Below are positions 34,035 through 53,436 of a stretch of DNA of 64,000 nucleotides, piece after piece. How positions within the stretch are numbered: the stretch's first letter is position 1; each line of letters begins with the position of its first letter. Below the pieces are notes generated by a model that was not told the DNA's origin, ran no database searches, and saw only the letters and a list, made by a program, of their open reading frames with translations. Position numbers and translations under genes: made by a program. This stretch comes from Catellatospora sichuanensis. Lineage in GTDB: Bacteria; Actinomycetota; Actinomycetes; Mycobacteriales; Micromonosporaceae. Location of the stretch: NCBI RefSeq assembly GCF_007483665.1, contig NZ_VIQO01000047.1:1-64000 (forward strand), written 5' to 3'.

Positions 34035-35474
34035 TCAGGCCTGGGGGTGCTGGCTGGCGCGTTTGGCCGCTGCGCCGATCAGATCGGCGTAGCGGCGATA
34101 CTGCTGCTCGATGTGCGCAGTCTCCCGCACGAGTGTTCCTTCGTGCGGGCGGTAGGTGCGGGTCGGCTGGTCGCGGAATGACAGCCAGTCGAATCCGGTG
34201 CTCACCCAGACGTCGTCGAAGATGAGGATGTTCGGATAGGGGTCCGGGACGTGCGCCACGGTGAGGCGGTCGTAGCGGCGAGCGAGTATCTGCAGCTTAT
34301 GCAGCGCCGCTCTGTCGTTATGGGTGGTGTCGTGGCCGAGGCCGTAGCCGATGTGGGCTGTCATGTCCGCCCGCCGGAGCATGACCTCGAGTTTGGCGAT
34401 GAAGCCGTCGGTGACGACCGCGTCGCGTACCCATGGTGCGGCCAGAAGCAAGCGGCGGCGTGCGGTGTCCAGGGCCGTGGTTAGCAGCTCCCGGTGTTCG
34501 AACAGCGGCACGCTTCGCACCGTCAGTGCGTCGAGTTCTGCGCGAGCGGTGTCACTGTCCTTGCGGTGCGGGCCAGTGACGGCTCGCGGGGACCGTGACT
34601 CCTCGGATGGCGTGCTGTCGGCGCGGCGTTGCAGGTCACGGACGACGTCGTACGATGCACGTTGTCTGCTGAGCGGGTCGGGTAGTTCGGGTTCGCGTAC
34701 TGCTGGCGCTAGCTGGATCTTGGTCCGGCTGAGTCCGCCGGCGTGGTGTAGGGCGTTGTCGTGGGCTTCGCTGAGGGTGTCGTCGACGATGACGTTGAAG
34801 CGGTGGTCGTCGGCTGTTTCCGAGACGTAGACCAGCAGTACGGCTGGCAGGAACAGGCGTGGTTGGCGGGTGACCGCTTCGACGCTGAGCACCTCGATTG
34901 TCGGTCGGCTTTCGTCGGAATTGCCGCGGTCGAGTAGCTGGTTGAGCATTCGAGGTGTGACGTCCGAGGTGGCGACCTCGTTGGTGCGCGACGACGGCAG
35001 CAGCACCATGCTTCGAGCTTCGGTGTCGGCACGAGTGATCAGGTCGGGCCTGCTGTGCGGGACTGGTTTCCAGAGCATGCGGTCGAAGGCCCGCTGGTGT
35101 TCGGTGCGCTGCGGTGTGGTGGTGGACATCTCCGTGACGGCTAGCTTGCCCCGGTGGGTCAGTAGGACCTTGTGGGCGCCGAGCGTGTCGGGACGGTACT
35201 CGATGGTTTCGGCCGACAGTTGGACCGCGACGGCGTCGGATACGGTCGGTGCGTCGATTCCAAGGACGGCTGCCATGTTGTCGACCTTGTGGATGCCGTG
35301 GTCGGCCAGTCGCAGTACGAACTCGTCGACCAAAGGCAGGTCCTTGCGTTCCTGGGCCAGTACGTCGAGGGTCAGCAGTGAGACGGGTACGGCTACCTCG
35401 CCGGCGTAGGCCAGGTGGTATCCGGGATGCTGGTCGCTGTAGCGGCGTGCGGCGATGACGGTGGGGTCAGCCAT
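34035..35474 (-). CDS. Degenerate phospholipase-D-fold protein, partner of the kinase-helicase
   Basis: A 479-residue protein. Residues about 1-110 look like winged-helix DNA-binding segments (L-T-H-R-G-K-L wing); the middle is variable. The C-terminal 150 residues (about 335-470) form a PLD-like unit: L-L-L-A-A-P-W-V-R-D, then I-L-I-F-D-D-x-W-V-S-T-G-F-D-W-L-S-F-R. In active PLDs the H-x-K-x4-D motif precedes such a segment; here His survives (A-H-V-P-D-P-Y) but the Lys is missing. It may bind rather than cut, or use other residues. The start overlaps the kinase-helicase stop by 8 bases, so the two are one transcript. Confidence 0.7.
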   Translation of the reverse strand: MADPTVIAARRYSDQHPGYHLAYAGEVAVPVSLLTLDVLAQERKDLPLVDEFVLRLADHGIHKVDNMAAVLGIDAPTVSDAVAVQLSAETIEYRPDTLGAHKVLLTHRGKLAVTEMSTTTPQRTEHQRAFDRMLWKPVPHSRPDLITRADTEARSMVLLPSSRTNEVATSDVTPRMLNQLLDRGNSDESRPTIEVLSVEAVTRQPRLFLPAVLLVYVSETADDHRFNVIVDDTLSEAHDNALHHAGGLSRTKIQLAPAVREPELPDPLSRQRASYDVVRDLQRRADSTPSEESRSPRAVTGPHRKDSDTARAELDALTVRSVPLFEHRELLTTALDTARRRLLLAAPWVRDAVVTDGFIAKLEVMLRRADMTAHIGYGLGHDTTHNDRAALHKLQILARRYDRLTVAHVPDPYPNILIFDDVWVSTGFDWLSFRDQPTRTYRPHEGTLVRETAHIEQQYRRYADLIGAAAKRASQHPQA

Positions 35475-38400
35475 TGCTTGCGGCTCCGATCGCGCAGTTA
35501 TCGCTGTTGCGGCGGATGTGGGTCAGCACGGTGTTGAGCGGACCGGGCGCTGACTCGCAGAATGGAGCGTCCCCGACGATGACAAGTCCGTAGCGGGAGC
35601 GCGACAGTGCGACGTTGATGCGCCGCCAGTTGCGGGCGTCGAGGAAGCCGAAGGCGCGTTTGTCGTTGCTGCGGACCACCGAGTAGAAGGTGATGTCGGC
35701 TTCTCGTCCTTGTACCGCGTCGACTGTCTTGACCTCGATGTCCAGGTGGTCGGACGGGGGGCCCGCGACGGCGCGGCGTAGTTGCTCCATCTGCTTGTCG
35801 TATGCGGTCAGCACGAGCACCCGCAGGGGCTTGCCGTCGGGCGTCTTGATGTGTCCCTTGTCCAGCGCGGTGCGTAGCGTCATGATCGCCCGGCGGATCA
35901 CACGGACCTCGCGGTGGTTGACCCAGCTTGTGCCGTCGCTGCGCTCACGTCGGTCGGCGATCGCGCCGGTGTCCATCCACGTGACCGGCTTGTAGAGCAC
36001 GTCCCAGCCGGGCAGCGTCCGCGTCGCCTTGGAGACGAGCCGGCCTTCGTAGAAGCACGCGGAGACGAGGTCACCGATGCCGGGATGCATCCGGTACTGG
36101 TGGGTGAGCCGGTGCCTGGCCGCCGCAGGCGCATGGTCGAGCAGCCGCTGGAACAAGCTGTGTTCGACGTCGGCGCGCTCGAGGTTGTGGCGCTGCATCA
36201 GCTCAGGATGGTCAAGGACTTCCTCCTGCATCGGCGGCAGCTGGTTGGGGTCTCCGACCAGTACCCATCGTTTGGACCGGGCAAGCGGAACGAGGGTCTC
36301 GGTGGCGGTGGCCTTGGATGCCTCGTCGAGGATGCACAGGTCGAACTTGAGGTCCTGGACGGCGGGGTGCGACAGGAAACCCAGGCAGGTGCCGGCAATG
36401 ACCCGTGAGGCGCGCAGGACGACGCCTTCCAGCTCCCTGCCGGATTCGATCCGCTGGAACCATTCGGCTTGCAGTGTGAGCAGCCCGACGAGTTTGCGCA
36501 GGTGCTCGTCGGTGCCCACGACGGCGTCGAAGGCGCCTCGGGCGACGTCTAGGGTCGGCTCCGTGGGCAGTTCGAGGTCGCCGTTGAGCGCCGTGTTGGC
36601 CTGGCCGCGCAGTTGCTCGATGCGTTCGGTGAGCGCCTGGACCCGGTCGTTGAGCACGGCCGTCTCCGAGGCGTTTTCTTCTTCGCCGAAGTCGGGCAGC
36701 TTGCCGGTCGAGCCGGTCGGCGAGTCGGCAAGGCTGTTCAGCCGCGCCTTGGCGGCGTCGAGGTCGCGTATAGCCTCGATCAGCTCCAGGATCAAGGCCG
36801 CGCCCTGTACATGTCCGTGGTCGACGCCTGTTTCCTGGGCTCGTTTGCGCAGCTCGGCGGCTGCCCGCTGCCGAACCTGACGGATCGTGGCCGGCATCTT
36901 CTGGTCGAGTAGATGCTGGCGAGCTTCGGCGGCGATGCGTGGGTCGTCTTCTTTGCCGAGGCGGACGAGGTTCTGCACACCGGCTTCGGCGAGACGGACC
37001 AGCGCGTTGTCGACCGCGACGTGGGTCTGGCTGACCAGCAGGATCCGGGCGTCGGGCTTGCGCGCCAGTTCCTGCTGTACGAGTTCAGCGATGAAGCTGG
37101 TTTTGCCGGTACCGGGTGGGCCTTCCAGGAGGAAGAAGTCGGGACTGGCGACCGCGGCGGTCACAGCCGCTTTCTTGTCATCGTCGAGCGCCGCGCTGAA
37201 CCAGGAGGCTACGTCGCGGGCGTAGGGGGCGGCGATCCGGCTGGGGTCGAGCAGAAGTTGGCGAAGTTGGGGACGGACCGAGATCCCGGCCCGAACGCTG
37301 ACGACGGCATCACGCTGACGCCGCAGCGACGAGGCGGTCGGCCCGATGTGCAGGGCGAGGTCACCGACAGGCGGTAAGGATTTGACCTTGCGGGGGTATG
37401 CGACCGTGATGGTCGAGTCGTCCTGCGCCACGACGACGCCGGGCCCGCCGACGGGCTTGCCGGTGGGAGTGCGGCACACCCGGTCCTGGCCGACGATGTC
37501 GCCGTCGGTACTACGGCGCAGGTAGAACGTCACCCGCTTGCGGTCGATATCGACGGCCTTGTACTCCAGTGGTGTTTCCCGTTCCCGCTCAAGGTCCTCT
37601 TTCGCCTCAAGCAGGCTGATCCACTTGCCGAACAGTGCGTCCTCGGCCTGGCGGTGCTTCTCGTCGTCCAGGCGCAGGTAATGGTCGTCAACTGCTGCGA
37701 GGATCATGCGCTGGGTGTCCAGCGCCGTGACGTGCGGCTGCTGGCGCGACGTCCACTTGATCTGCTCGCCGACTGCCCAGCCCCGTCGGCGGATGCCTTC
37801 CAGAACCTGGTCTTCTGCGTCGTTGACCCTGGTCACGAAGAACTCGGGCTTGCCGGCAGCGACCGCCAGACGGAGGCGGCGGGTGCTTCCGATCAGCTCC
37901 AGCGTGTCCGCCGACATGTTGCCTGCACGGTCTGTGTAGCGGACCAGGTGGCTTCCGTGGGCCAACTCGCGGCCCAGCTCCTGTTCCACGGCGTCGGCAT
38001 CGCGATCGAGCGGCGGTTTGACCAGGCGCCGGGCTGCATCCTCGTTGACGCGCAGCTGCGCTGGGCGCACGAAATCGGAGAAGCGACGCTGACGGCCGAC
38101 TTGGATCTCGCGCAGCATGCTGCGCAGCACGACGGCATTTTGCGGGCGGGCTTGCGGGTCCCTGTTCGTGCACCTCTCCAGCAACGCCTTGACCTGAGGC
38201 GGCACGTCGACGTCGGCGAGCGCGTTGTCGATGTCGGGGTAGTCGTCGAATGGGCCGGCGGTCAGGCAGCGTAGCGCTGTCGCGGCGAAGCCCCACACGT
38301 CACGGCTGGCGCTGCCCATGCCATACAAGTCCGGCGGTGCGTAGGGGCGCGAGAAGTGGTCGACGACTGTGAGCTCCGACAGCATCTGGCTGCGGATCTT

Positions 38401-38868
38401 GCTGATGCCGAAGTCGGCGAGTTTGGGCGTGCCGTCCTCGGCGATCAGGATGTTGGCCGGTTTCACGTCGCGGTGGACCACGTCGCGCTCGTGGGCGTGC
38501 GCCAGCGCTTCGACCAGCGGAAGTCCCCACTGCTCGGCGAAGTCGTCCCAGCCCAGGTCTCCGTCAGCGGGCAGGACGCTGAGCAGGTTCCGGTCGAACC
38601 AGGGCATGACTAGGTAGAACGCGTCCTCGGCTTCATCTTCGCCGAACGCTATCAACGAGACGATGTTGGGGTGGTCGAGCAGGTAGAGAGCGTCGACTTC
38701 GCGGCGGAAAAAGACCCGCTGGATCTCGTCTGCGTCGGCGCGTGAGATCAGTTTCAGGGCGACGACGGCTCCGTCGCCTTCGGTGTCGATCGCTTTGAGG
38801 ATCTTTGCCTGGCCGCCACTGCGTTCTTTGTCGGTCTTGACGACGTACCGCTCCGCCACCACACGCAA
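35467..38868 (-). CDS. Ser/Thr protein kinase fused to SF1 (UPF1/Dna2-like) helicase
   Basis: A 1133-residue fusion. Residues 1-260 form a Hanks-type kinase with all key residues: A-L-K-L (Lys about 40), H-R-D-V-K-P-A-N (about 135), A-D-F-G-I-S. A linker of about 290 residues leads to a UPF1/Dna2-type superfamily 1 helicase: G-P-P-G-T-G-K-T (about 585), L-D-E-A-S-K-A, V-G-D-P-N-Q-L-P-P, H-Q-Y-R-M-H-P, V-D-A-V-Q-G-R-E-A-D, and R-I-N-V-A-L-S-R. The TTG at 38868 is the likely start: GGAGG lies exactly 7 bases upstream, versus 13 for the next GTG. It runs opposite to the BREX operon and overlaps the PLD-like gene. Confidence 0.88.
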   Translation of the reverse strand: MRVVAERYVVKTDKERSGGQAKILKAIDTEGDGAVVALKLISRADADEIQRVFFRREVDALYLLDHPNIVSLIAFGEDEAEDAFYLVMPWFDRNLLSVLPADGDLGWDDFAEQWGLPLVEALAHAHERDVVHRDVKPANILIAEDGTPKLADFGISKIRSQMLSELTVVDHFSRPYAPPDLYGMGSASRDVWGFAATALRCLTAGPFDDYPDIDNALADVDVPPQVKALLERCTNRDPQARPQNAVVLRSMLREIQVGRQRRFSDFVRPAQLRVNEDAARRLVKPPLDRDADAVEQELGRELAHGSHLVRYTDRAGNMSADTLELIGSTRRLRLAVAAGKPEFFVTRVNDAEDQVLEGIRRRGWAVGEQIKWTSRQQPHVTALDTQRMILAAVDDHYLRLDDEKHRQAEDALFGKWISLLEAKEDLERERETPLEYKAVDIDRKRVTFYLRRSTDGDIVGQDRVCRTPTGKPVGGPGVVVAQDDSTITVAYPRKVKSLPPVGDLALHIGPTASSLRRQRDAVVSVRAGISVRPQLRQLLLDPSRIAAPYARDVASWFSAALDDDKKAAVTAAVASPDFFLLEGPPGTGKTSFIAELVQQELARKPDARILLVSQTHVAVDNALVRLAEAGVQNLVRLGKEDDPRIAAEARQHLLDQKMPATIRQVRQRAAAELRKRAQETGVDHGHVQGAALILELIEAIRDLDAAKARLNSLADSPTGSTGKLPDFGEEENASETAVLNDRVQALTERIEQLRGQANTALNGDLELPTEPTLDVARGAFDAVVGTDEHLRKLVGLLTLQAEWFQRIESGRELEGVVLRASRVIAGTCLGFLSHPAVQDLKFDLCILDEASKATATETLVPLARSKRWVLVGDPNQLPPMQEEVLDHPELMQRHNLERADVEHSLFQRLLDHAPAAARHRLTHQYRMHPGIGDLVSACFYEGRLVSKATRTLPGWDVLYKPVTWMDTGAIADRRERSDGTSWVNHREVRVIRRAIMTLRTALDKGHIKTPDGKPLRVLVLTAYDKQMEQLRRAVAGPPSDHLDIEVKTVDAVQGREADITFYSVVRSNDKRAFGFLDARNWRRINVALSRSRYGLVIVGDAPFCESAPGPLNTVLTHIRRNSDNCAIGAASNG

Positions 38869-39362: not shown

Positions 39363-42300
39363 GTGCGCGTGGACTCGCCGCGCTGGGAGCAGTTGAATCC
39401 CAGCTCCTTCGCGCACGAGCAGGATGGGCTACACGAGCTGGCCTCGTATCTGCCTGACGCCGACCCGTACCATGTGTGGGCAAATGTCGAGTTCGTCGGC
39501 ACCGACGGCTCGATCAACGAGGTAGATGCTCTCGTCTTGACGCCCAGCGGATTGTTCGTTGTCGAGCTCAAGCACTGGCAGGGCGAGATATGGGGTGACG
39601 GGATCCAGTGGGTGCGCCGGATGCCCAATGGACGTCAGACTCCTGAGGACAACCCCTACATACTTGCCAACCGCAAGGCGAAGCGTCTGGCTGGCTTGAT
39701 CAGGTTTTATGCACGCAAGCAGGGCAAGGAAGCGCTTACGCCCTATGTCGGAGCGGCGGTGTTCTTGCACGCCCGCGACCTGCGTACTCGCTTCGACGAG
39801 GTCGGCCGACAGGGCGTGTACGGCCTGCATGCCAACAGCGCCGGGCTGGATAGTTTGCAGCAGTTCGTGCTGGCTCGCCCGGTGCAGCAGCAGCGTCTGG
39901 TCGACGCCCAACGTGGCCGGCAGATCATCGAGCTCGTCAAGGGTGCCAAGATCCGACCGTCGGTCGCTGACCGCCGCATCGGACAGTTGATCTTGCATCC
40001 GCGGCCATTCGCGGAGGGCGTCGGTTGGCAGGACTTCCTCGCGGGACATTCGATGAACACGAGTGTGGTTCGTCGGGTGCGGTTCTACCTCACCAGCCGG
40101 GCCGCCGAGGAGGATGTGCCGATCATCCGCCGGGCCGCCGATCGCGAGTTCCGGCTGCTGCAAGGCATCAACCACCCCGGCATCGCCCATCCGGTGGACC
40201 TGGTCGACCACTCGTTCGGTCCGGCTGTGGTGTTCGACCACACGGCGGACTCCGTGCGGCTGGATCAGTGGCTGGTTCAGCGTGAGCGGAAGCTGACGCT
40301 GGCTCAGAAACTCGACCTTGTCCAGGACCTCGCCGAGATCGTCGAGTACGCGCACTCCCGGCGGCTGTCGCATCGCGCCCTGCACCCGCGCGCTGTCGTG
40401 GTGGCCAACGCGGACAAGCCACGTCCCCACCTGTCGGTCATTGACTGGCAGACCGGCGGCAGCATCGCCGGGGCGACTCAGGTGACCCGGTTGAGCTCCA
40501 CCGCAGACGGCGCCGGGTTGGAATTGTTCTTCGACGACGAGGTTCGCCGCTACCAGGCACCGGAGAGCACCGTGAGCGCGCAGGCGTCGGGTGTGCTGCT
40601 TGACGTGTTCGGGTTGGGCGCCACGGCGTACCGCATCTTCGCCGGCAACGCTCCCGCGGAGACGGCCGAGGAATTGCTGTCCGCGGTGCGCAACAGGGGC
40701 CTAAACCTGGCTGCGGTGGTGGACGGGATGCCCGACTCGCTGGTCACCCTCATCTACGACGCCACCCACGGCGATCCGGGACAGCGGTTGCGCAGCATCA
40801 GCGAGTTCCGCCGCAAGCTGGAGGAAGTCTGGGAGGAGATCACCGCTCCGGAGCCGGAAGCCGTCACCGATCCGCTGTCCGCGGCCAAGCATGACGTGCT
40901 CGACGGTGGTTTGACTGTGCTGCGCCGCCTGGGGTCGGGAGCGACCGCGACCGCGCTGCTTGTCTGGCGGGGCGACGGCGACAAGCGCCAGGAACTGGTA
41001 CTCAAGGTCGCCCGCGACGAACAGCACGCCGACCGGCTGGCCGCCGAGGCCGAGAGCCTGAGCAAGCTGAAATACGCCCACATCGCCTCACTGGTCGAAG
41101 GGCCGGTCACGGTCGGTGGGCGCACCGCGCTGCTGCTGGAGAGCGCCGGCCCCCGCACTCTGGCCGAGGAACTTCAGAGCGGGCGCTTGGCCCTGGAGAT
41201 GCTGGAGCGCTACGGCCGCGACCTGCTCGACATCCTTACCTACCTCGACAGCCAGGGTGTGTGGCACCGCGACCTGAAGCCAGCGAACCTGGCCGCTCGG
41301 CCCCGCACCAAGGACAAGCAGCTGCACCTGTGTGCGTTCGACTTCTCCCTGGCCTCTGCCTCGGCCGACCAGCTCACAGCGGGCACTCCCCCGTACCTCG
41401 ACCCGTTCCTCGGCGGCAAGCGGCCGCGCTACGACGCCGCGGCCGAGCGGTTCGCCGCCGCGGTGACCCTGTACGAGATGGCCACCGGGCAGCTGCCCCG
41501 GTGGGGAGACAACGCGAACCCGGCCGCCATTGATGACGAGGTGGCGCTTGAGCCGACCGCGTTCGACCCGGCGATCGCCGACCGGTTGATCACCTTCTTC
41601 GCTAAGGCTCTTGCCCGCGACGCCGCCCAGCGGTTCGACACCGTCGAAGAAATGGCCGACGCCTGGCGGGCGATCTTCCGTAACATTCCGAAGCTGCCCG
41701 CCATCCCGGTCACCGGCCCGACCTCGATCACCCGTGACACGCCGCTGGACGCGACTGACCTCACCGTTCGGGCTCGGTCGGCGCTGGAGCGCCTGGGCGT
41801 ACACACCGTCGGTGACCTGCTCGACTACAAGCCTGCAGATCTGACCCGTGCACAGGGTGTACCCGACGCCACGCGCAAGGAGATCCGCGCGGTGACGCGT
41901 ACCCTCCAGGCGCAGTTCGGAGCCATCCCCGCCGCCCCGCTGGTCGCCGCGGACAAGCCGATTGCGCAGGGCGTCGAGGCGGTCTGCGCGAACCTTCTCG
42001 CCGAAACCAGCGACAAAGACCGCGGCCCTATGAAGGTTCTGCTCGGTCAGGCCGCAACGGCGGACGGCATGTACCTACGCTGGCCGGCCCAGTCCGAGGC
42101 CGCCCGCGGGACCGGTCAGACCCAACCGCAGATCTCGGTGCTGCTGCGCAAGCACGCCAGGATGTGGCTCGACAACGCAGCGCTCTGCCAGGTCCGCGAC
42201 GAGATCGTGGCCCTGCTGAAGACTCGTGGCGCGGTGATGAGCAGCGACGAGCTTGCCGAGGCGCTGATTGCTGCCCGCGGCTCGTTCACCACGGGGCCGG

Positions 42301-43517
42301 GACGCCTGCCGCAGGCCATAGGCCTGGTCCGTGCAGCTGTCGAGGTCGAGCTCGCCCGCGGCGGCGACGCGCGCGTGGCCATCCACCGCTTCCGCAAGGG
42401 CTCCGACACGGTACTCGTCGGGCTGGAGCCCGACGATCCGGCGTCCCTGATCACCGCCGCGAACTTGCTCGACCACGCCGTCGAGCTCGGCCAGCGCGCC
42501 GGCAAGGTCGCGGCGGAGGACCCACTGCTGCCACGGCAGCGCGCGATCGAAGAGCTGCGCGCTGTCGCGGTACCCGACGGCATGCCTGCCCTGGCTGATC
42601 AGCGGCTGCTACAACTCGCTGCGGCGGCCAGCAACGGGATGGCCGCCGTCAGTGCACAGGGCCTTATCTACCCGGTCGGTATGCCCGCCGAGCGAGCGCT
42701 GCGCCTGTCCGCGAGCGCGCTCACCGGTCAGCGCCTGACGGAGGACGCGCTGCGCGAGCGCATTCAGGCGCGCTTCCCGCAGGCGCAGCCGCTGCCGAGC
42801 CGCCCCGCGCTCGAGCGTCTAGTGCAGGATTGCGGCGTTCCGCTGCTGTGGGACGGCGTGTCGCAGAGTTTCGTGCCGCCAACCTGGCAGAGCCAACCCA
42901 CGTCAACCCGTGTTGTCACAAACTACGCGCCGCTGCCCACGGCAAACGACGCGGCGGAGGCGGACCGACGGTTGGAGGCGACGATCGAACGCCGCGGGTA
43001 CCTCGCAGTCATGACCGCCCTGCGCAACCTCGCCAAGGCGCGCGTCAAGCTGATGAACAGGCATGGGCTGGTGGAGCTTGACGTTACCGCGGTGATGCTG
43101 GAGAAGTTGCAGGCGCTCGGCTTCCCGTGGGAGGCCATAGTCGCGGCCGACAGCGGCAAAGCCGCCGACGCCGACTTCCGCGGTCTCACAGAACTGTTCC
43201 AGCACCATGTCGTGCCTGCGATCTCCGATGCGCTGGAGCTTGACCGTCCGCTACTCATCACCGAACCGGCGCCGCTGGCCAGGTACGGCCAGATGCACGT
43301 GCTGCAGCAACTTACGGATCCGACCCGGAGTCGACCTGCAGCCAGGCTGCTGCTCCTGCCCGCCCGGCGTCCCGAGCCCGTCATGCTTGACCAGGCACAG
43401 GTCCCATTGACCTCGCCAGCCTCTCAGTCCCTGTGGCTGCCCGACACCTGGCTCGACGCCAACCACGCCGCACCGAAGGCCCGGCTCGCTGGCACCCTCA
43501 AAGGAGCGCTCCGCTGA
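39363..43517 (+). CDS. pglW: BREX-2 protein kinase PglW
   Basis: A 1384-residue protein. The N-terminal NERD nuclease-related domain (about residues 30-150) shows I-N-E-V-D-A-L-V-L and V-V-E-L-K-H-W. A first kinase-like domain (about 235-480) lacks the catalytic Asp (S-H-R-A-L-H-P-R-A) and DFG, so it is a pseudokinase. The second (about 515-780) is intact: L-G-S-G-A-T-A, H-R-D-L-K-P-A-N (about 635) and F-D-F-S. A helix-hairpin-helix-like segment follows near 800-845. PglW is the kinase of the phage growth limitation system. GTG 39363 has GGGAGGG 6 bases upstream. It shares one base with the pglX start. Confidence 0.9.
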   Translation: MRVDSPRWEQLNPSSFAHEQDGLHELASYLPDADPYHVWANVEFVGTDGSINEVDALVLTPSGLFVVELKHWQGEIWGDGIQWVRRMPNGRQTPEDNPYILANRKAKRLAGLIRFYARKQGKEALTPYVGAAVFLHARDLRTRFDEVGRQGVYGLHANSAGLDSLQQFVLARPVQQQRLVDAQRGRQIIELVKGAKIRPSVADRRIGQLILHPRPFAEGVGWQDFLAGHSMNTSVVRRVRFYLTSRAAEEDVPIIRRAADREFRLLQGINHPGIAHPVDLVDHSFGPAVVFDHTADSVRLDQWLVQRERKLTLAQKLDLVQDLAEIVEYAHSRRLSHRALHPRAVVVANADKPRPHLSVIDWQTGGSIAGATQVTRLSSTADGAGLELFFDDEVRRYQAPESTVSAQASGVLLDVFGLGATAYRIFAGNAPAETAEELLSAVRNRGLNLAAVVDGMPDSLVTLIYDATHGDPGQRLRSISEFRRKLEEVWEEITAPEPEAVTDPLSAAKHDVLDGGLTVLRRLGSGATATALLVWRGDGDKRQELVLKVARDEQHADRLAAEAESLSKLKYAHIASLVEGPVTVGGRTALLLESAGPRTLAEELQSGRLALEMLERYGRDLLDILTYLDSQGVWHRDLKPANLAARPRTKDKQLHLCAFDFSLASASADQLTAGTPPYLDPFLGGKRPRYDAAAERFAAAVTLYEMATGQLPRWGDNANPAAIDDEVALEPTAFDPAIADRLITFFAKALARDAAQRFDTVEEMADAWRAIFRNIPKLPAIPVTGPTSITRDTPLDATDLTVRARSALERLGVHTVGDLLDYKPADLTRAQGVPDATRKEIRAVTRTLQAQFGAIPAAPLVAADKPIAQGVEAVCANLLAETSDKDRGPMKVLLGQAATADGMYLRWPAQSEAARGTGQTQPQISVLLRKHARMWLDNAALCQVRDEIVALLKTRGAVMSSDELAEALIAARGSFTTGPGRLPQAIGLVRAAVEVELARGGDARVAIHRFRKGSDTVLVGLEPDDPASLITAANLLDHAVELGQRAGKVAAEDPLLPRQRAIEELRAVAVPDGMPALADQRLLQLAAAASNGMAAVSAQGLIYPVGMPAERALRLSASALTGQRLTEDALRERIQARFPQAQPLPSRPALERLVQDCGVPLLWDGVSQSFVPPTWQSQPTSTRVVTNYAPLPTANDAAEADRRLEATIERRGYLAVMTALRNLAKARVKLMNRHGLVELDVTAVMLEKLQALGFPWEAIVAADSGKAADADFRGLTELFQHHVVPAISDALELDRPLLITEPAPLARYGQMHVLQQLTDPTRSRPAARLLLLPARRPEPVMLDQAQVPLTSPASQSLWLPDTWLDANHAAPKARLAGTLKGALR

Positions 43518-46500
43518 TGATCGACGTCAAGGCTCTACAGGGCCAGGTCAGGTGCCTCGTCGAAGACCTCCGCATTCAGGTCACGACCGATAGCGGGCGC
43601 AAATCAGCGCTGCAGAAGGAGTACGCCGAGGCAAAGGCAGCCGACCGGGTCGGTGTCACGTTCGAAACGTGGCTGGAGGACGTGCTGGACCAGGCAGCCG
43701 TAGCGTGGGTGCTGGGCTGTGTGTTCGTCCGATTCTGCGAGGACAATCAGCTCATCGACCGTCAGTGGTTAGGGGGGCCCGACACGAGTGCGTCGGTCGA
43801 GTGGGCGCTGCAGGCGCGGCAGGCATACCTGATCAGCAACCCCACTCACAATGACCGGCACTGGCTGCGCGACGGCGCGTTCGCGCACATGCGCGGCCTA
43901 CGCGCCACCGCCAAGATCTTCGACGAGCACAACCCCGTTTGGCATTTCGACATCTCCGCTGACGCCGCCGAGGCCCTTTCTGACTTCTTCCGCCGTGGCG
44001 ATGGGCACCGGTCACTGCACACCGAGACTCTCGACACGCGCTTCCTCGGCGACCTCTACCAGGACCTTTCGTCCCACGCCCGGTCGACGTACGCATTGCT
44101 GCAGACGCCGGAGTTTGTCGAAGAATTCATCCTTGACCGTACCTTCGAACCTGCGGTCCAACAGTTCGGCCTCCCCGAGACGTCCGTCATCGACCCGACG
44201 TGCGGCTCCGGCCACTTCCTGCTCGGCGCATTCGAGCGCCTGCTGGCCAAGTGGCGTGAACGTGAACCTGCCACCGCCGTCGACACCCTTGTCGAACGCG
44301 CGCTGGGGCAGGTCACTGGCGTCGATTTGAATCCCTTTGCTGTCGCCATCGCCCGCTTTCGGCTAGTCGTCGCCGCGCTGCGTGCCACTGGTCGCACCAA
44401 CCTCAACAACACTTATCCGGTACGGGTAGCGACAGGCGATTCGCTGCTCACTTGGGGCGTCACGTCCCGCCACCAGGGAGACCTCCTCGCCGAACTCGAA
44501 GGACGTCCCACCTTCGCATACATTTCCGAAGACGCCGACCTACTCGTCGACTACCTCCGCCCCGGCCAGTACACCGTTGTAGTTGGCAACCCGCCCTACA
44601 TCACGGTCAAAGACAAGGTCCTCAACGAGCGATACCGTGACATGTACTCGGCCTGCTCAGGCAAGTACGCGCTGTCAGTACCGTTCGCGCAGCGGTTCTT
44701 CCAGTTAGCCAAGCGCGGCGATGAAGACGGCGACGGAGCAGGTCGCGTCGGCCAGATCACAGCAAACTCGTTCATGAAACGCGAATTCGGCAAGAAACTC
44801 ATCAATGAGTACTTCGCCGGCGAGGTCGAACTGACGGAGGTCATCGACACATCGGGCGCATATATCCCGGGCCACGGCACCCCGACCGTGATTCTCATCG
44901 GCAACAATCGCTACGTGAGTCGGCGCTACAGCAGCGAGATTCGCATGGTTCTCGGCGTGCGTGGCGAGCCGGGCCAGCCAGTACAACCCTCTAAGGGACA
45001 CGTTTGGACAGCGATCATCAAGCAGATCGAAAAACCCGGCACCGACTCAGAGTGGATCAGTGTTAACGACTCTGCCCGCGACCAGTTGGCTTCCCACCCT
45101 TGGAGTCTTTCTGGCGGTGGCGCATCTGATGTGCTCAATCATCTGAACAAGTCGACTAGGAGGTTGGGGTCCACGATCGAGGGTGCCATCGGGTTTGCCA
45201 GTTTTCCCGGACAGGATGAAGCCTTCTTCGCCCCCCGAAGCTGGTTTGAACGCAGGTGTATGTCTGGCGATCTTCATCGGCCTCTGATCATCGGCGAGTT
45301 GGTTCGAGACTGGGACTGCCGTCGCGGCGATAACGCGCTGGTTCCCTATGGCGAAGACCTACTGCCGCTGCCCTTCGACCTGAACGCGCCTTGGGCACGC
45401 CACCTCTGGACTCTCCACCGCACGCTCGGCTCAACTACTGGGTTCGGCGGCCAGACGCGCGCAGCCTCCGACGATCCCTGGTGGACGTGGTATCGCTGGG
45501 TTCCAGAGCGTTACCGCACGCCGTTGTCGATTACGTTTGCGTTCGTGGCTACGCATAACCACTTTGTTTTGGATCGGGGCGGAAAGGTCTTCAACCGATC
45601 TGCGCCCGTGATCAAAATGCCCGTGGGAACCACGGAAGACGATCACCTGCAGCTGCTGGCGGTGCTTAACAGCTCCACCACCTGCTTCTGGCTCAAGCAG
45701 GTCAGCCAGCCTAAGGCAGGTACAGCCAATTCCAGCGGCGGAGGCAACCGGTGGAGCCCTGAGCCCTGGTACGAGCGCTACGAGTTCACCGGCACGAAGT
45801 TACAGGAGTTCCCCTTGCCCTCGGCGTATCCGCCCAAGCTGGGTCGGGAGCTGGATACCCTGGCCCAGCGGCTGGCTGAGCTGACTCCGTCTGCGGTCGT
45901 CGCATCGGACGTGGCGACGCATTCACGGCTGGCTGAAGCGCGCGCCGAGTACGCCACGGTCCGCTCACGGATGATTTCGCTGCAGGAGGAGCTGGATTGG
46001 CAGGTCTACCGGCTCTACGGGTTTATCGATGATGACCTGACCGCAGCAAATCCGCCCGAGCTGGCGCTGGGCGAGCGGGCCTTCGAGATCGTGCTGGCTC
46101 GGAAGATGGCGGCGGGCGATGCCGAGACGCAGTGGTTCGATCGGCATCGTGCGACGCCGATCACCGACCTGCCCACACACTGGCCCGCCGAGTATCGGGC
46201 GCTGGTGGAAAAGCGGATCGCAGTGATCGAGGCCGACCGCAACATTGAGCTTATCGAGCGGCCGGAATGCAAACGTCGCTGGAACACTTCCGCCTGGGAC
46301 GACCTGGAGAAAGCCGCCCTGGAGGGCTGGCTGCTGGACTGGTTGGAGGCTCCCTCGCTGTGGGGCGGTGTGCCGACCCCGCTTTCGGTGGCGCAGATCG
46401 CTGACCGCGTCCGCCACGACGCTGGCTTCCGGGCCGTGCTCGACCTGTGGGTCGGCACGGACCACCACGACCTAGTCAAAACTCTGGCCACGCTGATCAC

Positions 46501-47044
46501 TGACGCGCACGTGCCGTTCCTGCCCGCCGACCGCTACAAGCCTTCCGGGCTGCGTAAACGCGTCCAGTGGGAGCGGACCTGGTCGCTGCAGCGCCGCGAG
46601 GGCACCGGTGTGAAGGTCGACATCGCGGTTCCGCCGAATTACGCCTCGGCCGACTTCACTAAGCCGTCGTACTGGCGCAACCGCGGCAAACTCGACGTAC
46701 CCAAGGAACGCTTCATCTCATACCCCCGCATGGGCCGCGACGAGGACAGCAGCGAGCTGCTCGGCTGGGCGGGTTGGGACCACCTGCAGCAGGCCCAGGC
46801 CCTGGCCGCCGTCTACCTAGACCGCAAGCAACAGGCTGGCTGGCCCACCGACCGGCTCCTGCCGCTGCTCGCGGGCCTGGCTGAGCTGGAGCCGTGGCTC
46901 GAGCAGTGGCACGATGGGCCCAAACCCGGCTACCTGGGCACCCCGGCCAAGTTCTTCTCCGGCCTCATCGACACCGAGCTCGGCTCCCTCGGAGCCGACC
47001 GCTTGACCCTGACCAAGCTGCGTGGTGTGGAGGAACTCGCATGA
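43517..47044 (+). CDS. pglX: BREX-2 adenine-specific DNA methyltransferase PglX
   Basis: A 1175-residue methyltransferase. The N-terminal region has helices and F-C-E-D-N-Q. The SAM motif D-P-T-C-G-S-G-H-F lies at about 224-232 and the catalytic motif N-P-P-Y at about 357-360, the gamma-class N6-adenine order. A long C-terminal target-recognition region follows. In BREX it marks host DNA at a non-palindromic site and is needed for phage exclusion. ATG 43517 overlaps the pglW stop (TGATG). Its stop overlaps the pglY ATG by 4 bases. Methylation site is not predictable from sequence alone. Confidence 0.92.
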   Translation: MIDVKALQGQVRCLVEDLRIQVTTDSGRKSALQKEYAEAKAADRVGVTFETWLEDVLDQAAVAWVLGCVFVRFCEDNQLIDRQWLGGPDTSASVEWALQARQAYLISNPTHNDRHWLRDGAFAHMRGLRATAKIFDEHNPVWHFDISADAAEALSDFFRRGDGHRSLHTETLDTRFLGDLYQDLSSHARSTYALLQTPEFVEEFILDRTFEPAVQQFGLPETSVIDPTCGSGHFLLGAFERLLAKWREREPATAVDTLVERALGQVTGVDLNPFAVAIARFRLVVAALRATGRTNLNNTYPVRVATGDSLLTWGVTSRHQGDLLAELEGRPTFAYISEDADLLVDYLRPGQYTVVVGNPPYITVKDKVLNERYRDMYSACSGKYALSVPFAQRFFQLAKRGDEDGDGAGRVGQITANSFMKREFGKKLINEYFAGEVELTEVIDTSGAYIPGHGTPTVILIGNNRYVSRRYSSEIRMVLGVRGEPGQPVQPSKGHVWTAIIKQIEKPGTDSEWISVNDSARDQLASHPWSLSGGGASDVLNHLNKSTRRLGSTIEGAIGFASFPGQDEAFFAPRSWFERRCMSGDLHRPLIIGELVRDWDCRRGDNALVPYGEDLLPLPFDLNAPWARHLWTLHRTLGSTTGFGGQTRAASDDPWWTWYRWVPERYRTPLSITFAFVATHNHFVLDRGGKVFNRSAPVIKMPVGTTEDDHLQLLAVLNSSTTCFWLKQVSQPKAGTANSSGGGNRWSPEPWYERYEFTGTKLQEFPLPSAYPPKLGRELDTLAQRLAELTPSAVVASDVATHSRLAEARAEYATVRSRMISLQEELDWQVYRLYGFIDDDLTAANPPELALGERAFEIVLARKMAAGDAETQWFDRHRATPITDLPTHWPAEYRALVEKRIAVIEADRNIELIERPECKRRWNTSAWDDLEKAALEGWLLDWLEAPSLWGGVPTPLSVAQIADRVRHDAGFRAVLDLWVGTDHHDLVKTLATLITDAHVPFLPADRYKPSGLRKRVQWERTWSLQRREGTGVKVDIAVPPNYASADFTKPSYWRNRGKLDVPKERFISYPRMGRDEDSSELLGWAGWDHLQQAQALAAVYLDRKQQAGWPTDRLLPLLAGLAELEPWLEQWHDGPKPGYLGTPAKFFSGLIDTELGSLGADRLTLTKLRGVEELA

Positions 47045-50000
47045 CCCTGATGCGTGACCTGATCCGTATCCCGACGTCGGTGAGCGAGGGCGACTTTGTC
47101 GTCCGCGCGTCCGAGGGCGCCGATCTCGCCAACTATGTGGTGACTGACGACCTGCGCGGCAACTTCACCGAGGCCCTGCAGACCATCGGGCATGCGGTAA
47201 CGACCAGCCGGTCGCAGGCAAAGTTCCTGCACGGCTCGTTCGGCGCGGGTAAGTCGCATTTCATGTCGGTGCTGCGGGAGATCCTCAAACACAACCCGCA
47301 AGCCCGCGCGATCCGCGGCCTGGCCGAGCCTGTCGCCTCGGCGGACGCCTGGCTGCCCGGCAAGAAGCTGCTGTGCCTTACCTTCCACATGCTCGACGCC
47401 CGGTCGGTGGAGCAGGCCGTCCTGGAGGGCTACCTGCGCCAGATCGCAGCCCTGCATCCGGACGCGCCAACCCCGGCCGTACACCGCTCGGACGCTCTGC
47501 TCAGAGACGCGGCGAACCTGCGCCAGGCCATGGGCGACGACGCGTTCTTCGGCAAGCTCGGCGACGACACCGGTCCCGCCGCGACCGGGCAGGGCTTGGC
47601 CGCGATGATGGCGCGGGCTCAGGGCTGGACGCCGCAGACCTACGACGCCGCTGCCGCCGCGGCACCCGGCACTGCTGAGCGCGACAGCCTAGTCAGTGCA
47701 CTGACCAGGACGTTCTTCACCGGGGCGGTGCAGAGCGGCGAGTACCTCGATCTCGACACGGGCCTGCAGGTCATCACCCGCCACGCGAAGAGCCTCGGCT
47801 ACGACGCGGCCGTGCTGTTCCTCGACGAGCTGATCCTGTGGCTGTCGACGAAGATCGCCGACCACACCTTCGTTAACACCGAGGGCGCGAAACTGAACAA
47901 GCTGGTCGAGTCGTCGGACGCGGCGCGGCCGCTGCCGCTTGTGTCGTTCGTCGCCCGGCAGCGCAACCTGGAGGAGTTCCTCGGCCCGCAGGTCGGCGGC
48001 ACCGAGCGCGAGGCGCTTGCGCACGTGATGCGCAGCGTGCAGGGCCGATTCGGCGAGATCGTGCTCGCCGACACGAATCTGCCCGAGATCACTGAGAAGC
48101 GGCTGCTGCGTCCCGTCAGCGACGAGGCCCGGCGGACCATCGACGACGCGTTCACTGCCGTGCGCAACCGGCGCGAGGTGTGGGACACGCTGCTGCTGGG
48201 CGCGCAGTACGGCGACGCCGGCATCGGCTCCGACGCGGCGGCGTTCCGGCGGCTCTACCCGTTCTCCCCTGCGCTCGTCGCGACGCTGGTGGCGCTGTCG
48301 CAGGCGCTGCAGCGCGAGCGCACGGCGCTGCGGGTCATGACCGAGTTGCTCGTCGCCTGCCGCGACACCCTCGCCGTCAACGACCTGATCGGGGTGTCCG
48401 CGCTGTTCGACCCGCTGGTCCTTCACGGCGAGCTGCCCGACCGGCCGAAGCTGCGCCAGCAGTTCCGCGCCGCCCGGGACACGTACACGTCTAAGCTGCG
48501 GCCGCTGCTGCTGGCCAAGAACGGCATCGCCGAGGAGCAGGCCGCATCGCACGAGCAGTTCCAGCTCGACGACAAGCTGATTAAGACGCTGTTGCTGGGC
48601 GCGCTGGTGCCCGACGTACCCGCGCTGCACAACCTGACCGCGTCACGCCTACACGCGCTGAACTTCGGCAGCATCAGCTCGCCGGTGCCGGGGTACGAGA
48701 ACCAGATCGTCATCGACCGGCTGACCCGGCTGTCGGCTGACGCGGGCGAGATCCACAAGACCGAGGGCGCGGACCCGGTGTTCTCGCTGAAGCTGTCCTC
48801 GGTCGACTACGACAAGCTGCTCGAACTCGTCGGCAACGAGGAGACCACCGCAGGTGTGCTGCAGGGCCTCATCCGAGACCTGACCACGTCGGCCCTGGGT
48901 CTGCGTGACAGCGAGGAGGTACTCGGCGAGTACGTCCACCAGCGTGAATGGCGGGGCCGACGGCATCGCATCGGCGTCAAGTTCGGCAACATCCGCAACC
49001 GGGAGACCATGCCCGACAGCGCCCTTTACGCCGAGGGCGACACCTGGCGCATTGTCGTCGACTACCCTTTCGACACCCAGGGACACAGCCGGCGTGACGA
49101 CCTGGCCCGCATCGAGGGGCTCGAGCGTGGTTCGCGCACCGTGTTCTGGTTACCGTACTTCCTCACCGATGAACTGATGGGGCGCGTAGCCCAGCTCGCT
49201 AAGATCAACTATCTGCTGGGCGTTACGGGCACCGGTGAGAAGCTCAACAGCCTCGCCGCGGACTGGTCGCAGGCTGATCGGCAGCAGGGCAGGATCTACC
49301 TGCAGCAGCGCCAGCAGCAGCTGCGCTCCTCGCTGGCCGATAGCCTCAAACAGGCATATGGCGTGATCAAGTCGCAGGCCGCGGATGTAGAGCTCGACCA
49401 GATACCTGTGTTCCACACTCTCGCCGACGGCCTGCAGTTGGGCGATCCACGCGGCGGGACCATGGACTCGGCGTTCGCACACCTCACGGCCGATGTGCTG
49501 CGCTGGTCCTACCCTGGAACGCCTGCGCTGCCCGAAGACGAGAAGCCCGTCACGAAGGCCGAGCTGGCGAAGGTTTGGCACTACGCCAAGATCGCCGCGG
49601 CCGCCCCGGACCGGGCCGCCACCATTGAGCAGGCCGACCGGCGCATCCTGCAGCGCATCTGCAACCACCTGCGCCTCGGCGAGCTCGTCGAGAACCGCTA
49701 CGTGCTCACGAACGCGACTTGCTGGTGGAGTCAGCATCTGCTGCAGGAGGCCGCCAAGCAAGACTTCCGCGACCACTTCCCCGTGCATGTACTGCGCGAC
49801 CTGCTCGACGAGCCCGCTCCCCGGGGATTCGAACGGGACTTACAGAACATGGTCATTGCAGTGTTCGCGCTGGAGCAGCAGCTGGCCTGGTATCGCCAGG
49901 GCGGGAAGCTAGAGCTGAGCTCGCTGCAAGAGATCAGCGACCAGCTGGAGTTGCGCCATCCGCCCATGCCGGAGCCGGAGGTATGGGACCAGGCTGTGAA

Positions 50001-50709
50001 ACGGGCCCGTCCCCTGTTCGGCAAGCAGGTGCCGGAGTGGCGCAGCCCGGCCGCGCTGGCGGAGTTCGCCGCGATGGTCCGAGGCGAGGCGAAGACCCAC
50101 GCCCCGGACGCGCAGGTGCTACTCAAGGAGCTGTCCGGGCATGCCAAGGTGCTCGGGCTGGACCAGGAAGCGAAATCCGGCCGGCTTGCGACCGCTCGGC
50201 GGGTGGCCAAGCTGCTCCACCAGATCTCGAATGAGACCGACGACGTCGTGCTCGTCAGCTACGTCGCGGAGGCCGAGGTCGGTGACATCGACGACCTGGC
50301 CGCGAGCGTCGCCTACAAGAAGGCCAGCGCGGTGACGGCTGCGTTGGCCCGGATGAACTGGCCTCTGGTGGACGCCGTCATCAGCCACAGTGCCGCCAAC
50401 GAACGCGCTCGGGTGATCGTCGACAAGCTGCGCATCGTCGCCGCGAACGACCAGCACGCCGGTGACCTCGTTGCGGCTCTGCACGAGGCGTCGATCGCCG
50501 CGACGGCTTTCCTCGCCGACCTGCCGTCGGTCGTGGTGGACCCCGATCCGGATCCGGTTCCCGATGGCAAAGACGGCGATGATCCGGTCAACCCGCCTAA
50601 GGTGCTTGAGGTCAGGCGTCGGGCCGACCTCGACGACCTTCTTAGCGCCTTGCAGGGCGACCTTACAGACGGCGGCACCATCCGTGTGACATGGGAGATC
50701 CTCAGGTGA
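47041..50709 (+). CDS. pglY: BREX-2 P-loop ATPase PglY
   Basis: A 1222-residue ATPase of the BrxC/PglY family. Walker A H-G-S-F-G-A-G-K-S-H-F lies at residues 64-74, and a Walker B-like L-F-L-D-E-L-I-L-W-L at about 260-269. The remainder is mostly helical, with acidic and Asp/Pro-rich parts near 1160-1195. PglY is an essential component of BREX. ATG 47041 overlaps the pglX stop, and the last bases overlap the pglZ GTG. Confidence 0.92.
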   Translation: MTLMRDLIRIPTSVSEGDFVVRASEGADLANYVVTDDLRGNFTEALQTIGHAVTTSRSQAKFLHGSFGAGKSHFMSVLREILKHNPQARAIRGLAEPVASADAWLPGKKLLCLTFHMLDARSVEQAVLEGYLRQIAALHPDAPTPAVHRSDALLRDAANLRQAMGDDAFFGKLGDDTGPAATGQGLAAMMARAQGWTPQTYDAAAAAAPGTAERDSLVSALTRTFFTGAVQSGEYLDLDTGLQVITRHAKSLGYDAAVLFLDELILWLSTKIADHTFVNTEGAKLNKLVESSDAARPLPLVSFVARQRNLEEFLGPQVGGTEREALAHVMRSVQGRFGEIVLADTNLPEITEKRLLRPVSDEARRTIDDAFTAVRNRREVWDTLLLGAQYGDAGIGSDAAAFRRLYPFSPALVATLVALSQALQRERTALRVMTELLVACRDTLAVNDLIGVSALFDPLVLHGELPDRPKLRQQFRAARDTYTSKLRPLLLAKNGIAEEQAASHEQFQLDDKLIKTLLLGALVPDVPALHNLTASRLHALNFGSISSPVPGYENQIVIDRLTRLSADAGEIHKTEGADPVFSLKLSSVDYDKLLELVGNEETTAGVLQGLIRDLTTSALGLRDSEEVLGEYVHQREWRGRRHRIGVKFGNIRNRETMPDSALYAEGDTWRIVVDYPFDTQGHSRRDDLARIEGLERGSRTVFWLPYFLTDELMGRVAQLAKINYLLGVTGTGEKLNSLAADWSQADRQQGRIYLQQRQQQLRSSLADSLKQAYGVIKSQAADVELDQIPVFHTLADGLQLGDPRGGTMDSAFAHLTADVLRWSYPGTPALPEDEKPVTKAELAKVWHYAKIAAAAPDRAATIEQADRRILQRICNHLRLGELVENRYVLTNATCWWSQHLLQEAAKQDFRDHFPVHVLRDLLDEPAPRGFERDLQNMVIAVFALEQQLAWYRQGGKLELSSLQEISDQLELRHPPMPEPEVWDQAVKRARPLFGKQVPEWRSPAALAEFAAMVRGEAKTHAPDAQVLLKELSGHAKVLGLDQEAKSGRLATARRVAKLLHQISNETDDVVLVSYVAEAEVGDIDDLAASVAYKKASAVTAALARMNWPLVDAVISHSAANERARVIVDKLRIVAANDQHAGDLVAALHEASIAATAFLADLPSVVVDPDPDPVPDGKDGDDPVNPPKVLEVRRRADLDDLLSALQGDLTDGGTIRVTWEILR

Positions 50710-53411: not shown

Positions 53412-53436
53412 ACCCGCACCACCAGGAGCCCGCACC

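What the first reader, a model, noticed from the sequence alone, without database searches (positions are those of the whole stretch)
34035..38868. Two-gene kinase-helicase fusion / degenerate PLD module next to BREX-2
A complete Hanks kinase and a complete UPF1/Dna2-like helicase sit in one 1133-residue polypeptide, whose stop overlaps the start of a PLD-fold protein missing the HKD lysine. Kinase plus helicase plus PLD-fold resembles parts of several defence systems, but I do not know this exact pair as a named one. The kinase may gate the helicase or phosphorylate the PLD protein on infection. It is divergent from, and shares a 490-base control region with, a BREX operon that also uses a kinase (PglW).
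Basis: partly seen in the sequence, partly recalled or inferred. Interest (0 to 1): 0.8.

Follow-up and report, generated by a model that had tools for sequence, protein, structure and literature searches.

The report
Mokosh-type defence pair, inactive nuclease
The kinase-helicase gene and its partner are a known kind of bacterial anti-phage system (Mokosh type I), but the partner protein, usually taken to be the nucleic-acid-cutting part, has lost its cutting residues while still being preserved by selection, as seems to have happened several times in related systems.

Summary
35467-38868 (-) encodes a 1133-aa protein with a complete Ser/Thr kinase and a complete UPF1/SMUBP2/DNA2-type SF1 helicase; it overlaps a 479-aa gene (34035-35474, -) by 8 nt. 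The pair is not unnamed: PADLOC's MkoA model covers 1125 of 1132 residues (E 3.8e-226) and its MkoB model matches the partner (E 2.7e-55), so these are Mokosh type I homologues. The BREX-2 neighbour looks incidental: none of 34 other MkoA-like loci has it in the flanks held. The unusual part is MkoB. It is modelled as a MarR-like winged helix plus a PLD fold, but its HKD motif reads Y-x-N-x4-D. Of 32 MkoB proteins compared, 13 lack HxK-x4-D; loss of the lysine needs at least four changes on the MkoA tree. The nearest orthologue shares the loss, and the dead domain is under purifying selection (dN/dS 0.23). In all five Hyphomicrobiales plasmid loci fetched, a motif-less MkoB is followed by a PP2C phosphatase gene. 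I read the window operon as a pseudo-nuclease variant of Mokosh type I, in which MkoB is probably an adaptor or kinase scaffold and MkoA does the work. The mechanism is inferred.

The parts
35467..38868 (-). MkoA homologue, 1133 aa: N-terminal Ser/Thr kinase, middle region, C-terminal SF1 (UPF1/SMUBP2-like) helicase
   Evidence: PADLOC MkoA PDLC03920 E 3.8e-226 over residues 3-1127 of the 1132 aa given; Pfam kinase and AAA_11/AAA_12; catalytic motifs intact
38131..38820 (-). Ser/Thr kinase domain (VALK, HRDVKPAN, ADFG, APPD)
   Evidence: Pfam PF00069 100.9 bits in the genome scan; motifs
35566..37188 (-). SF1 helicase domain (residues 561-1101): GPPGTGKT, DEAS, GDPNQLPP, QYRMHP, DAVQGRE, NVALSRSR
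   Evidence: Pfam AAA_11 + AAA_12; motifs; PDB NAM7/UPF1
34035..35474 (-). MkoB homologue, 479 aa; its start overlaps the mkoA stop by 8 nt
   Evidence: PADLOC MkoB PDLC03922 E 2.7e-55; adjacent partner in relatives
35115..35348 (-). predicted winged-helix domain of MkoB (residues 43-120), MarR-like
34044..34532 (-). PLD-fold domain of MkoB (residues 315-477)
34215..34238 (-). degenerate HKD motif (residues 413-420, YPNILIFD: Y and N stand where H and K are expected, D kept)
   Evidence: aligned with HxKxxxxD of 19 of 32 MkoB proteins; QPN in the closest orthologue L160
38869..39362 (.). 494-bp divergent intergenic region to the BREX-2 operon; no sigma-70-type promoter or terminator pattern found
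39363..56879 (+). neighbouring BREX-2 operon (PglW, PglX, BrxC/PglY, PglZ, BrxD, BrxHI); a neighbour, not part of the pair
   Evidence: PADLOC hits

Best explanation
This is a pseudo-nuclease variant of a Mokosh type I operon. SHOWN: MkoA is a full-length kinase-helicase with intact catalytic motifs; MkoB is its conserved neighbour, without the PLD catalytic His and Lys; the motif-less domain is under purifying selection between two orthologues; on the MkoA tree the loss of the lysine needs several changes. MODELLED: MkoB as a winged helix plus a PLD fold. INFERRED: MkoB is not the nuclease here but an adaptor. Its winged helix contacts nucleic acid and its pseudo-PLD face holds MkoA, as the pseudo-PLD domain of FAM83 proteins anchors the Ser/Thr kinase CK1. 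MkoA loads on phage-derived nucleic acid, translocates like UPF1, and either displaces phage transcription or replication complexes or, once engaged, switches on its kinase, which phosphorylates MkoA, MkoB or a host target to stop the infection. Where a PP2C gene is present it would reset the kinase. In relatives with an intact motif the PLD nuclease would add cleavage.
For: MkoA/MkoB identity. In the plasmid collection 23 records match MkoA (22 over at least 80% of it); 22 of these 23 also match MkoB next to it, and the 23rd (Microvirga) has a gene there that matches MkoB weakly. Mokosh type I is described as helicase + STK with a separate PLD gene (PMC11672841, passage). The motif is absent from 13 of 32 MkoB. 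Lysine loss needs four changes on the 32-row MkoA tree (quick tree). Holding the window and Lentzea-type losses together as one clade is rejected (p-AU 5e-6; the group was chosen after the first tree was seen). dN/dS, window against L160: MkoA 0.179, MkoB 0.199 (bootstrap 0.150-0.259), PLD domain 0.225 (0.140-0.352). Model: winged helix + PLD, with FAM83B among the PLD-fold matches. FAM83 pseudo-PLD domains anchor CK1 (PMC6008594, passages). A PP2C gene follows a motif-less MkoB in 5 of 5 Hyphomicrobiales plasmid loci fetched, of 7 such records listed (Pfam PP2C in the two tested).
Against: No experiment and no complex model supports contact between MkoB and MkoA, or kinase switching. 19 of 32 MkoB keep HxK-x4-D, so catalysis is kept in most of the proteins compared, which argues that cleavage matters there. 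FAM83B is only one of many PLD-fold matches; it shares a fold, not a demonstrated function. PP2C relatives were found neither in the window nor in the other loci searched. Several motif-less lineages also vary in the kinase: HRDxNxxN and DYG in Hyphomicrobiales, DFA in the Mycobacterium-type clade, though the catalytic Asp residues stay. MkoA could not be modelled well (mean pLDDT 55.6), and the MkoB model rests on 5 sequences (mean pLDDT 75.2, pTM 0.48). The defence role of this copy rests on homology.
Confidence: 0.45

Rival explanations
1. MkoB is still a nuclease, using an altered PLD active site or a hetero-dimer partner that supplies HKD residues.
For: The motif Asp and the predicted fold are kept; the single-motif nuclease Nuc acts as a dimer (PMC6008594, passage).
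Against: The histidine is the nucleophile in PLD enzymes (PMC6008594, passage). It is Y in the window and Q in the closest orthologue, so the position is not conserved. The PADLOC MkoB scan of the window genome shows one MkoB gene only, in two pieces.
Confidence: 0.15
2. The operon is a decaying or already dead Mokosh copy.
For: Loss of catalytic residues is how decay can begin; the motif is weakened in steps in the Mycobacterium-type clade (RAK, VAK, PAK, PAR).
Against: Both genes are full length and overlap; dN/dS is 0.15-0.23 in all domains against an orthologue 75-79% identical; kinase and helicase motifs are intact.
Confidence: 0.05
3. A housekeeping RNA or DNA metabolism pair rather than defence.
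For: UPF1-like helicases act in cellular nucleic-acid metabolism (matches).
Against: Patchy: 12 of 354 genomes of the family and 8 of 394 of the class sample have an MkoB match; 23 plasmid records carry it; it lies next to BREX-2 here; and it matches the Mokosh models.
Confidence: 0.1
4. The pair is an accessory of the divergent BREX-2 operon and is co-regulated with PglW.
For: 494-bp divergent arrangement in the window; PglW also has kinase domains, one of which matches the MkoA model (E 1e-36).
Against: None of 34 other MkoA-like loci carries BREX-2 proteins in the flanks held; in G1005 and G1008 PglZ lies on another contig or about 0.7 Mb away; no clear enrichment.
Confidence: 0.04

Closest known systems
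Mokosh type I (MkoA + MkoB; Millman et al. 2022, recalled, paper not held)
   Same: One-polypeptide Ser/Thr kinase + SF1 helicase, followed by a separate PLD-fold gene; HMM matches to MkoA over nearly the whole length and to MkoB
   Different: MkoB lacks the HKD His and Lys, so the predicted nuclease step is missing; MkoA matches the 1112-position model (752 bits) far better than the 1607-position one (398 bits)
Mokosh type II (MkoC, helicase-PLD fusion)
   Same: The MkoA helicase and, weakly, the MkoB PLD end match parts of MkoC
   Different: Two genes here, and a kinase
TrmBL2 (archaeal winged-helix chromatin protein)
   Same: Top Foldseek hits to the MkoB model
   Different: rmsd of 11-13 A over both parts, so only a domain-level similarity
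FAM83 DUF1669 pseudo-PLD
   Same: PLD fold with a degenerate HKD motif; anchors a Ser/Thr kinase
   Different: Vertebrate proteins; no evidence of a common function with MkoB
Hachiman (HamA nuclease + HamB helicase)
   Same: Two-gene defence pair of a helicase and an effector partner (start of abstract in the listing)
   Different: Different effector; no kinase (recalled)
BREX-2 (PglW)
   Same: Neighbour; PglW matches the MkoA model over a kinase domain (E 1e-36)
   Different: A separate operon and system

Membership tests
Mokosh type I | MkoA: SF1 helicase (COG1112 type) with an added Ser/Thr kinase domain | tested here: met
   PDLC03920 E 3.8e-226 over residues 3-1127; Pfam; motifs. The COG itself was not tested
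Mokosh type I | Separate adjacent gene homologous to MkoB | tested here: met
   PDLC03922 E 2.7e-55; 8-nt overlap; conserved adjacency
Mokosh type I | PLD fold in MkoB | tested here: met
Mokosh type I | PLD-family nuclease catalytic motif (HxKxxxxD) | tested here: not met
   No HxKxxxx[DE] anywhere in the 479 aa; the aligned site reads YPNILIFD. Hence called a variant, not a full member with a nuclease
Mokosh type I | Protection against phages | not testable with these tools
   needs an experiment
Mokosh type II | helicase and PLD in one protein | tested here: not met
   two ORFs
BREX-2 component | constant part of BREX-2 loci | tested here: not met
   tested from the Mokosh side only: none of 34 other MkoA-like loci has BREX-2 proteins in the flanks held; PglZ not clearly enriched in Mokosh genomes
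TrmB family | winged helix and second domain arranged as in TrmBL2 | tested here: inconclusive
   top Foldseek hits but rmsd 11-13 A over both parts

The most novel reading that the evidence does not exclude
Mokosh type I has repeatedly turned its nuclease into a pseudo-nuclease: MkoB then acts as a nucleic-acid-binding kinase anchor, and immunity runs through phosphorylation by a helicase-fused Hanks kinase that a dedicated PP2C phosphatase resets in some lineages. This would be a kinase-signalling defence built on the scaffold of a nuclease system.
Probability: 0.3. Interest if true: 0.7.

Novelty: new variant of a known kind. Interest (0 to 1): 0.45.

Why it matters
In the passages I read, Mokosh is described as a helicase with a PLD nuclease that degrades phage transcripts or other phage nucleic acid (PMC11291487; PMC11672841). 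If many MkoB proteins lack the cutting motif (13 of the 32 compared, a sample gathered by homology to this one) and are still preserved, cleavage cannot be the whole mechanism, and the kinase becomes a candidate effector. The window operon and its 75-79% identical orthologue offer a natural experiment: the system without the nuclease motif. The PP2C genes give a direct test of a phosphorylation switch.

Tried and rejected
The unnamed-system reading was dropped after the PADLOC match. A functional tie to BREX-2 was tested at locus and genome level and dropped. Decay was tested by dN/dS and dropped (a simple pairwise count with Jukes-Cantor correction, dS about 0.8). One origin for the lysine losses in the window and Lentzea lineages was tested and rejected. 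Compensation by a third gene: the closest orthologue has a 417-aa gene 30 bp after mkoB with no Pfam or PADLOC match; no relative of it was found in the window genome, the window or the other loci searched, so it does not explain the window. PP2C and DUF3800 relatives were not found in the window. The first genome-contig scan, with MkoB alone, gave no relative. A phage-record search with MkoA found nothing at E<=1e-40. The MkoA model was too poor to use. No promoter or terminator pattern was found in the divergent region (the patterns may not fit this organism). Literature: Millman et al. 2022 is not held. Searches for a catalytically inactive PLD nuclease in anti-phage papers and for Mokosh with kinase and phosphatase gave 1 and 0 papers (the one was not read), so no claim is made that this is unpublished outside that library.

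Rows dropped before counts. Of the 37 rows, L040 (same protein length and scores as L039) and L050, L051 and L168 (no complete partner gene) were left out of the MkoB comparison; L169 has no PLD region; that leaves 32. L167 (a fragment) gave no MkoA. The L162 MkoB was translated from an in-frame point near the MkoA end, not from a start codon. The L044 MkoA frame stays open to the end of the stretch held, 39 bases short of the contig end, so its kinase is unknown. L155, L157 and L158 are near copies, as are L037 and L159, so 13 of 32 counts sequences, not events. The sample is not random. The tree is a quick one with long branches (L165, L166, L049, L153); one of its four lysine changes is a K-to-R in L161, and another is the Hyphomicrobiales group, where the alignment at the motif is uncertain (absence of HxKxxxx[DE] was checked over the whole proteins). 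Such counts cannot tell gain from loss. The tree used 24 of these 32 rows, without the Hyphomicrobiales and some long or duplicate rows, and needs three. The BREX flanks are uneven: mostly 5-10 kb a side, but 59 bases on the MkoA side of L044 and 1.6 kb in L047. The 34 loci include L039/L040 (same protein) and the short MkoA-like L168 and L169; L050 and L051 were not searched. The 15 genomes are not all with Mokosh: G293, G804 and G818 (partial matches) and the named records L046-L049 were left out; in G387, a draft, PglZ and Mokosh are on different contigs, so their distance is unknown.

Full report
WHAT IS THERE. The window has a two-gene operon on the minus strand: 35467-38868 (1133 aa) and 34035-35474 (479 aa), overlapping by 8 nt. 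The first gene's TTG start has AGGAGG 7 nt upstream, and the closest orthologue also has a TTG at the matching place. The first protein has a Ser/Thr kinase (Pfam PF00069, E 1e-27) and an SF1 helicase (AAA_11 5.7e-39, AAA_12 1.1e-43), with the catalytic motifs in place and NAM7/UPF1, SMUBP-2 and DNA2 as best PDB helicase matches.

WHAT IT IS. PADLOC's MkoA model matches residues 3-1127 of 1132 at E 3.8e-226 and its MkoB model matches the second protein at E 2.7e-55; the PLD end also matches MkoC weakly (E 7e-5). Mokosh type I is described in print as an RNA helicase with an added STK domain plus a separate PLD nuclease gene (PMC11672841, passage; table passage in PMC10952713). The window pair is a homologue of that named system. 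In the plasmid collection 23 records match MkoA at E<=1e-60, 22 of them over at least 80% of it, and 22 of the 23 also match MkoB at the adjacent position; the 23rd (Microvirga) has a gene there that matches MkoB weakly.

HOW COMMON. In the order sample 14 of 397 genomes match the PADLOC MkoB model at E<=1e-20. Of these 14, six (the window included) carry the kinase-helicase type of operon or, in G387, one cut at the contig end; the other eight have a helicase-only relative instead. With the alignment of MkoB proteins, 12 of 354 genomes of the family, 8 of 394 of the class sample and 3 of 396 of the phylum sample match at E<=1e-15, the window genome included each time and partial matches counted.

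BREX-2. The neighbour is a BREX-2 operon. None of the 34 other MkoA-like loci among the 45 loci searched has a PglW, PglX, BrxC, PglZ or BrxD relative in the flanks held (the only hits were BrxHI-like helicases in L031 and L154). Flanks are mostly 5-10 kb a side, but near nil on the relevant side in L044. PglZ is in 4 of 15 Mokosh genomes examined against 44 of 200 genomes of the family, the window in both: 3 of 14 against 43 of 199 without it, and 2 of 6 if only the window's family is taken. These numbers are too small to exclude a weak association, but in G1005 and G1008 PglZ lies on another contig or about 0.7 Mb away. I take the adjacency as incidental.

THE UNUSUAL PART. Aligned to relatives, the HKD site of the window MkoB reads YPNILIFD where, for example, L039 reads HAKILIFD. 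Of 32 MkoB proteins with a PLD region, 19 have HxKxxxx[DE] at the aligned site and 13 have it nowhere: 3 keep the lysine only, 1 has arginine, and 9 lack both, namely the window, its closest orthologue L160, Lentzea L047 and its relative L044, and five Hyphomicrobiales plasmids. On a quick 32-row MkoA tree lysine loss needs four changes, which the supported branches also force. On a careful tree of 24 rows, without the Hyphomicrobiales, it needs three, and uniting the window and Lentzea lineages is rejected (p-AU 5e-6; the group was chosen).

NOT DECAY. Between the window and L160, MkoA is 78.6% and MkoB 74.9% identical; dN/dS is 0.179 and 0.199, and 0.225 in the motif-less PLD domain, with bootstrap ranges of 0.150-0.259 for MkoB and 0.140-0.352 for the PLD domain. 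The protein is maintained without the catalytic pair.

PARTNERS. All five Hyphomicrobiales plasmid loci fetched (of seven such records listed) have a gene annotated as PP2C straight after a motif-less MkoB (Pfam PP2C in the two tested; all five are similar to each other), and three of them a DUF3800 gene after it. PP2C relatives were found neither in the other loci searched nor in the window. Mycobacterium plasmid MkoB adds an S1 RNA-binding domain (L148).

MECHANISM. Shown: domain content, conserved pairing, motif loss in several lineages, purifying selection on the motif-less domain. Modelled: the winged helix and PLD fold. Inferred: MkoB binds nucleic acid and holds MkoA; MkoA's helicase senses or remodels phage nucleic acid; the kinase is the output or the switch in motif-less versions. 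I give this mechanism 0.45; the Mokosh homology itself is near certain.

VERDICT. A known kind of defence pair in a pseudo-nuclease variant.

Noticed in passing
L153, L155, L156, L157, L158 (Hyphomicrobiales plasmids): Mokosh-like operons with a PP2C phosphatase gene right after a motif-less MkoB, and a DUF3800 gene after it in three of the five (L155, L157, L158).
   Followed up: partly
L160:7408-8661 (-): A 417-aa protein without Pfam or PADLOC match follows mkoB by 30 bp in the closest orthologous locus; no relative found in the window genome or the other loci searched.
   Followed up: partly
L148:10405-12258, L147:10384-12153, L041:6454-8217, L030:8888-10627: MkoB proteins longer than the window's at the C-terminus; in L148 (Mycobacterium marinum plasmid pRAW) this is an S1 RNA-binding domain by Pfam, and L147 is annotated so. 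The similar-looking ends of L030 and L041 were not tested.
   Followed up: partly
L031, L034, L035, L036, L038, L042, L043 (L032/L033 for G246): MkoA-like helicases of about 1200 aa without a kinase match, in genomes with PADLOC MkoB matches, several of them in ORFs of about 1100 aa; possibly another Mokosh-like arrangement.
   Followed up: no
L168, L169: Short 764-aa MkoA-like genes; beside them only partial MkoB matches (392 aa without PLD region in L169; in G818/L168 a match with an internal stop).
   Followed up: no
window 20016-21560 (-): ISL3-family transposase (Pfam DDE_Tnp_ISL3) left of the defence genes.
   Followed up: no
window 58304-60586 (-): 760-aa gene whose residues 17-153 match a PADLOC model named Aga_REase-PNTD1-PNTD2 at E 8e-18, beyond BREX-2.
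   Followed up: no
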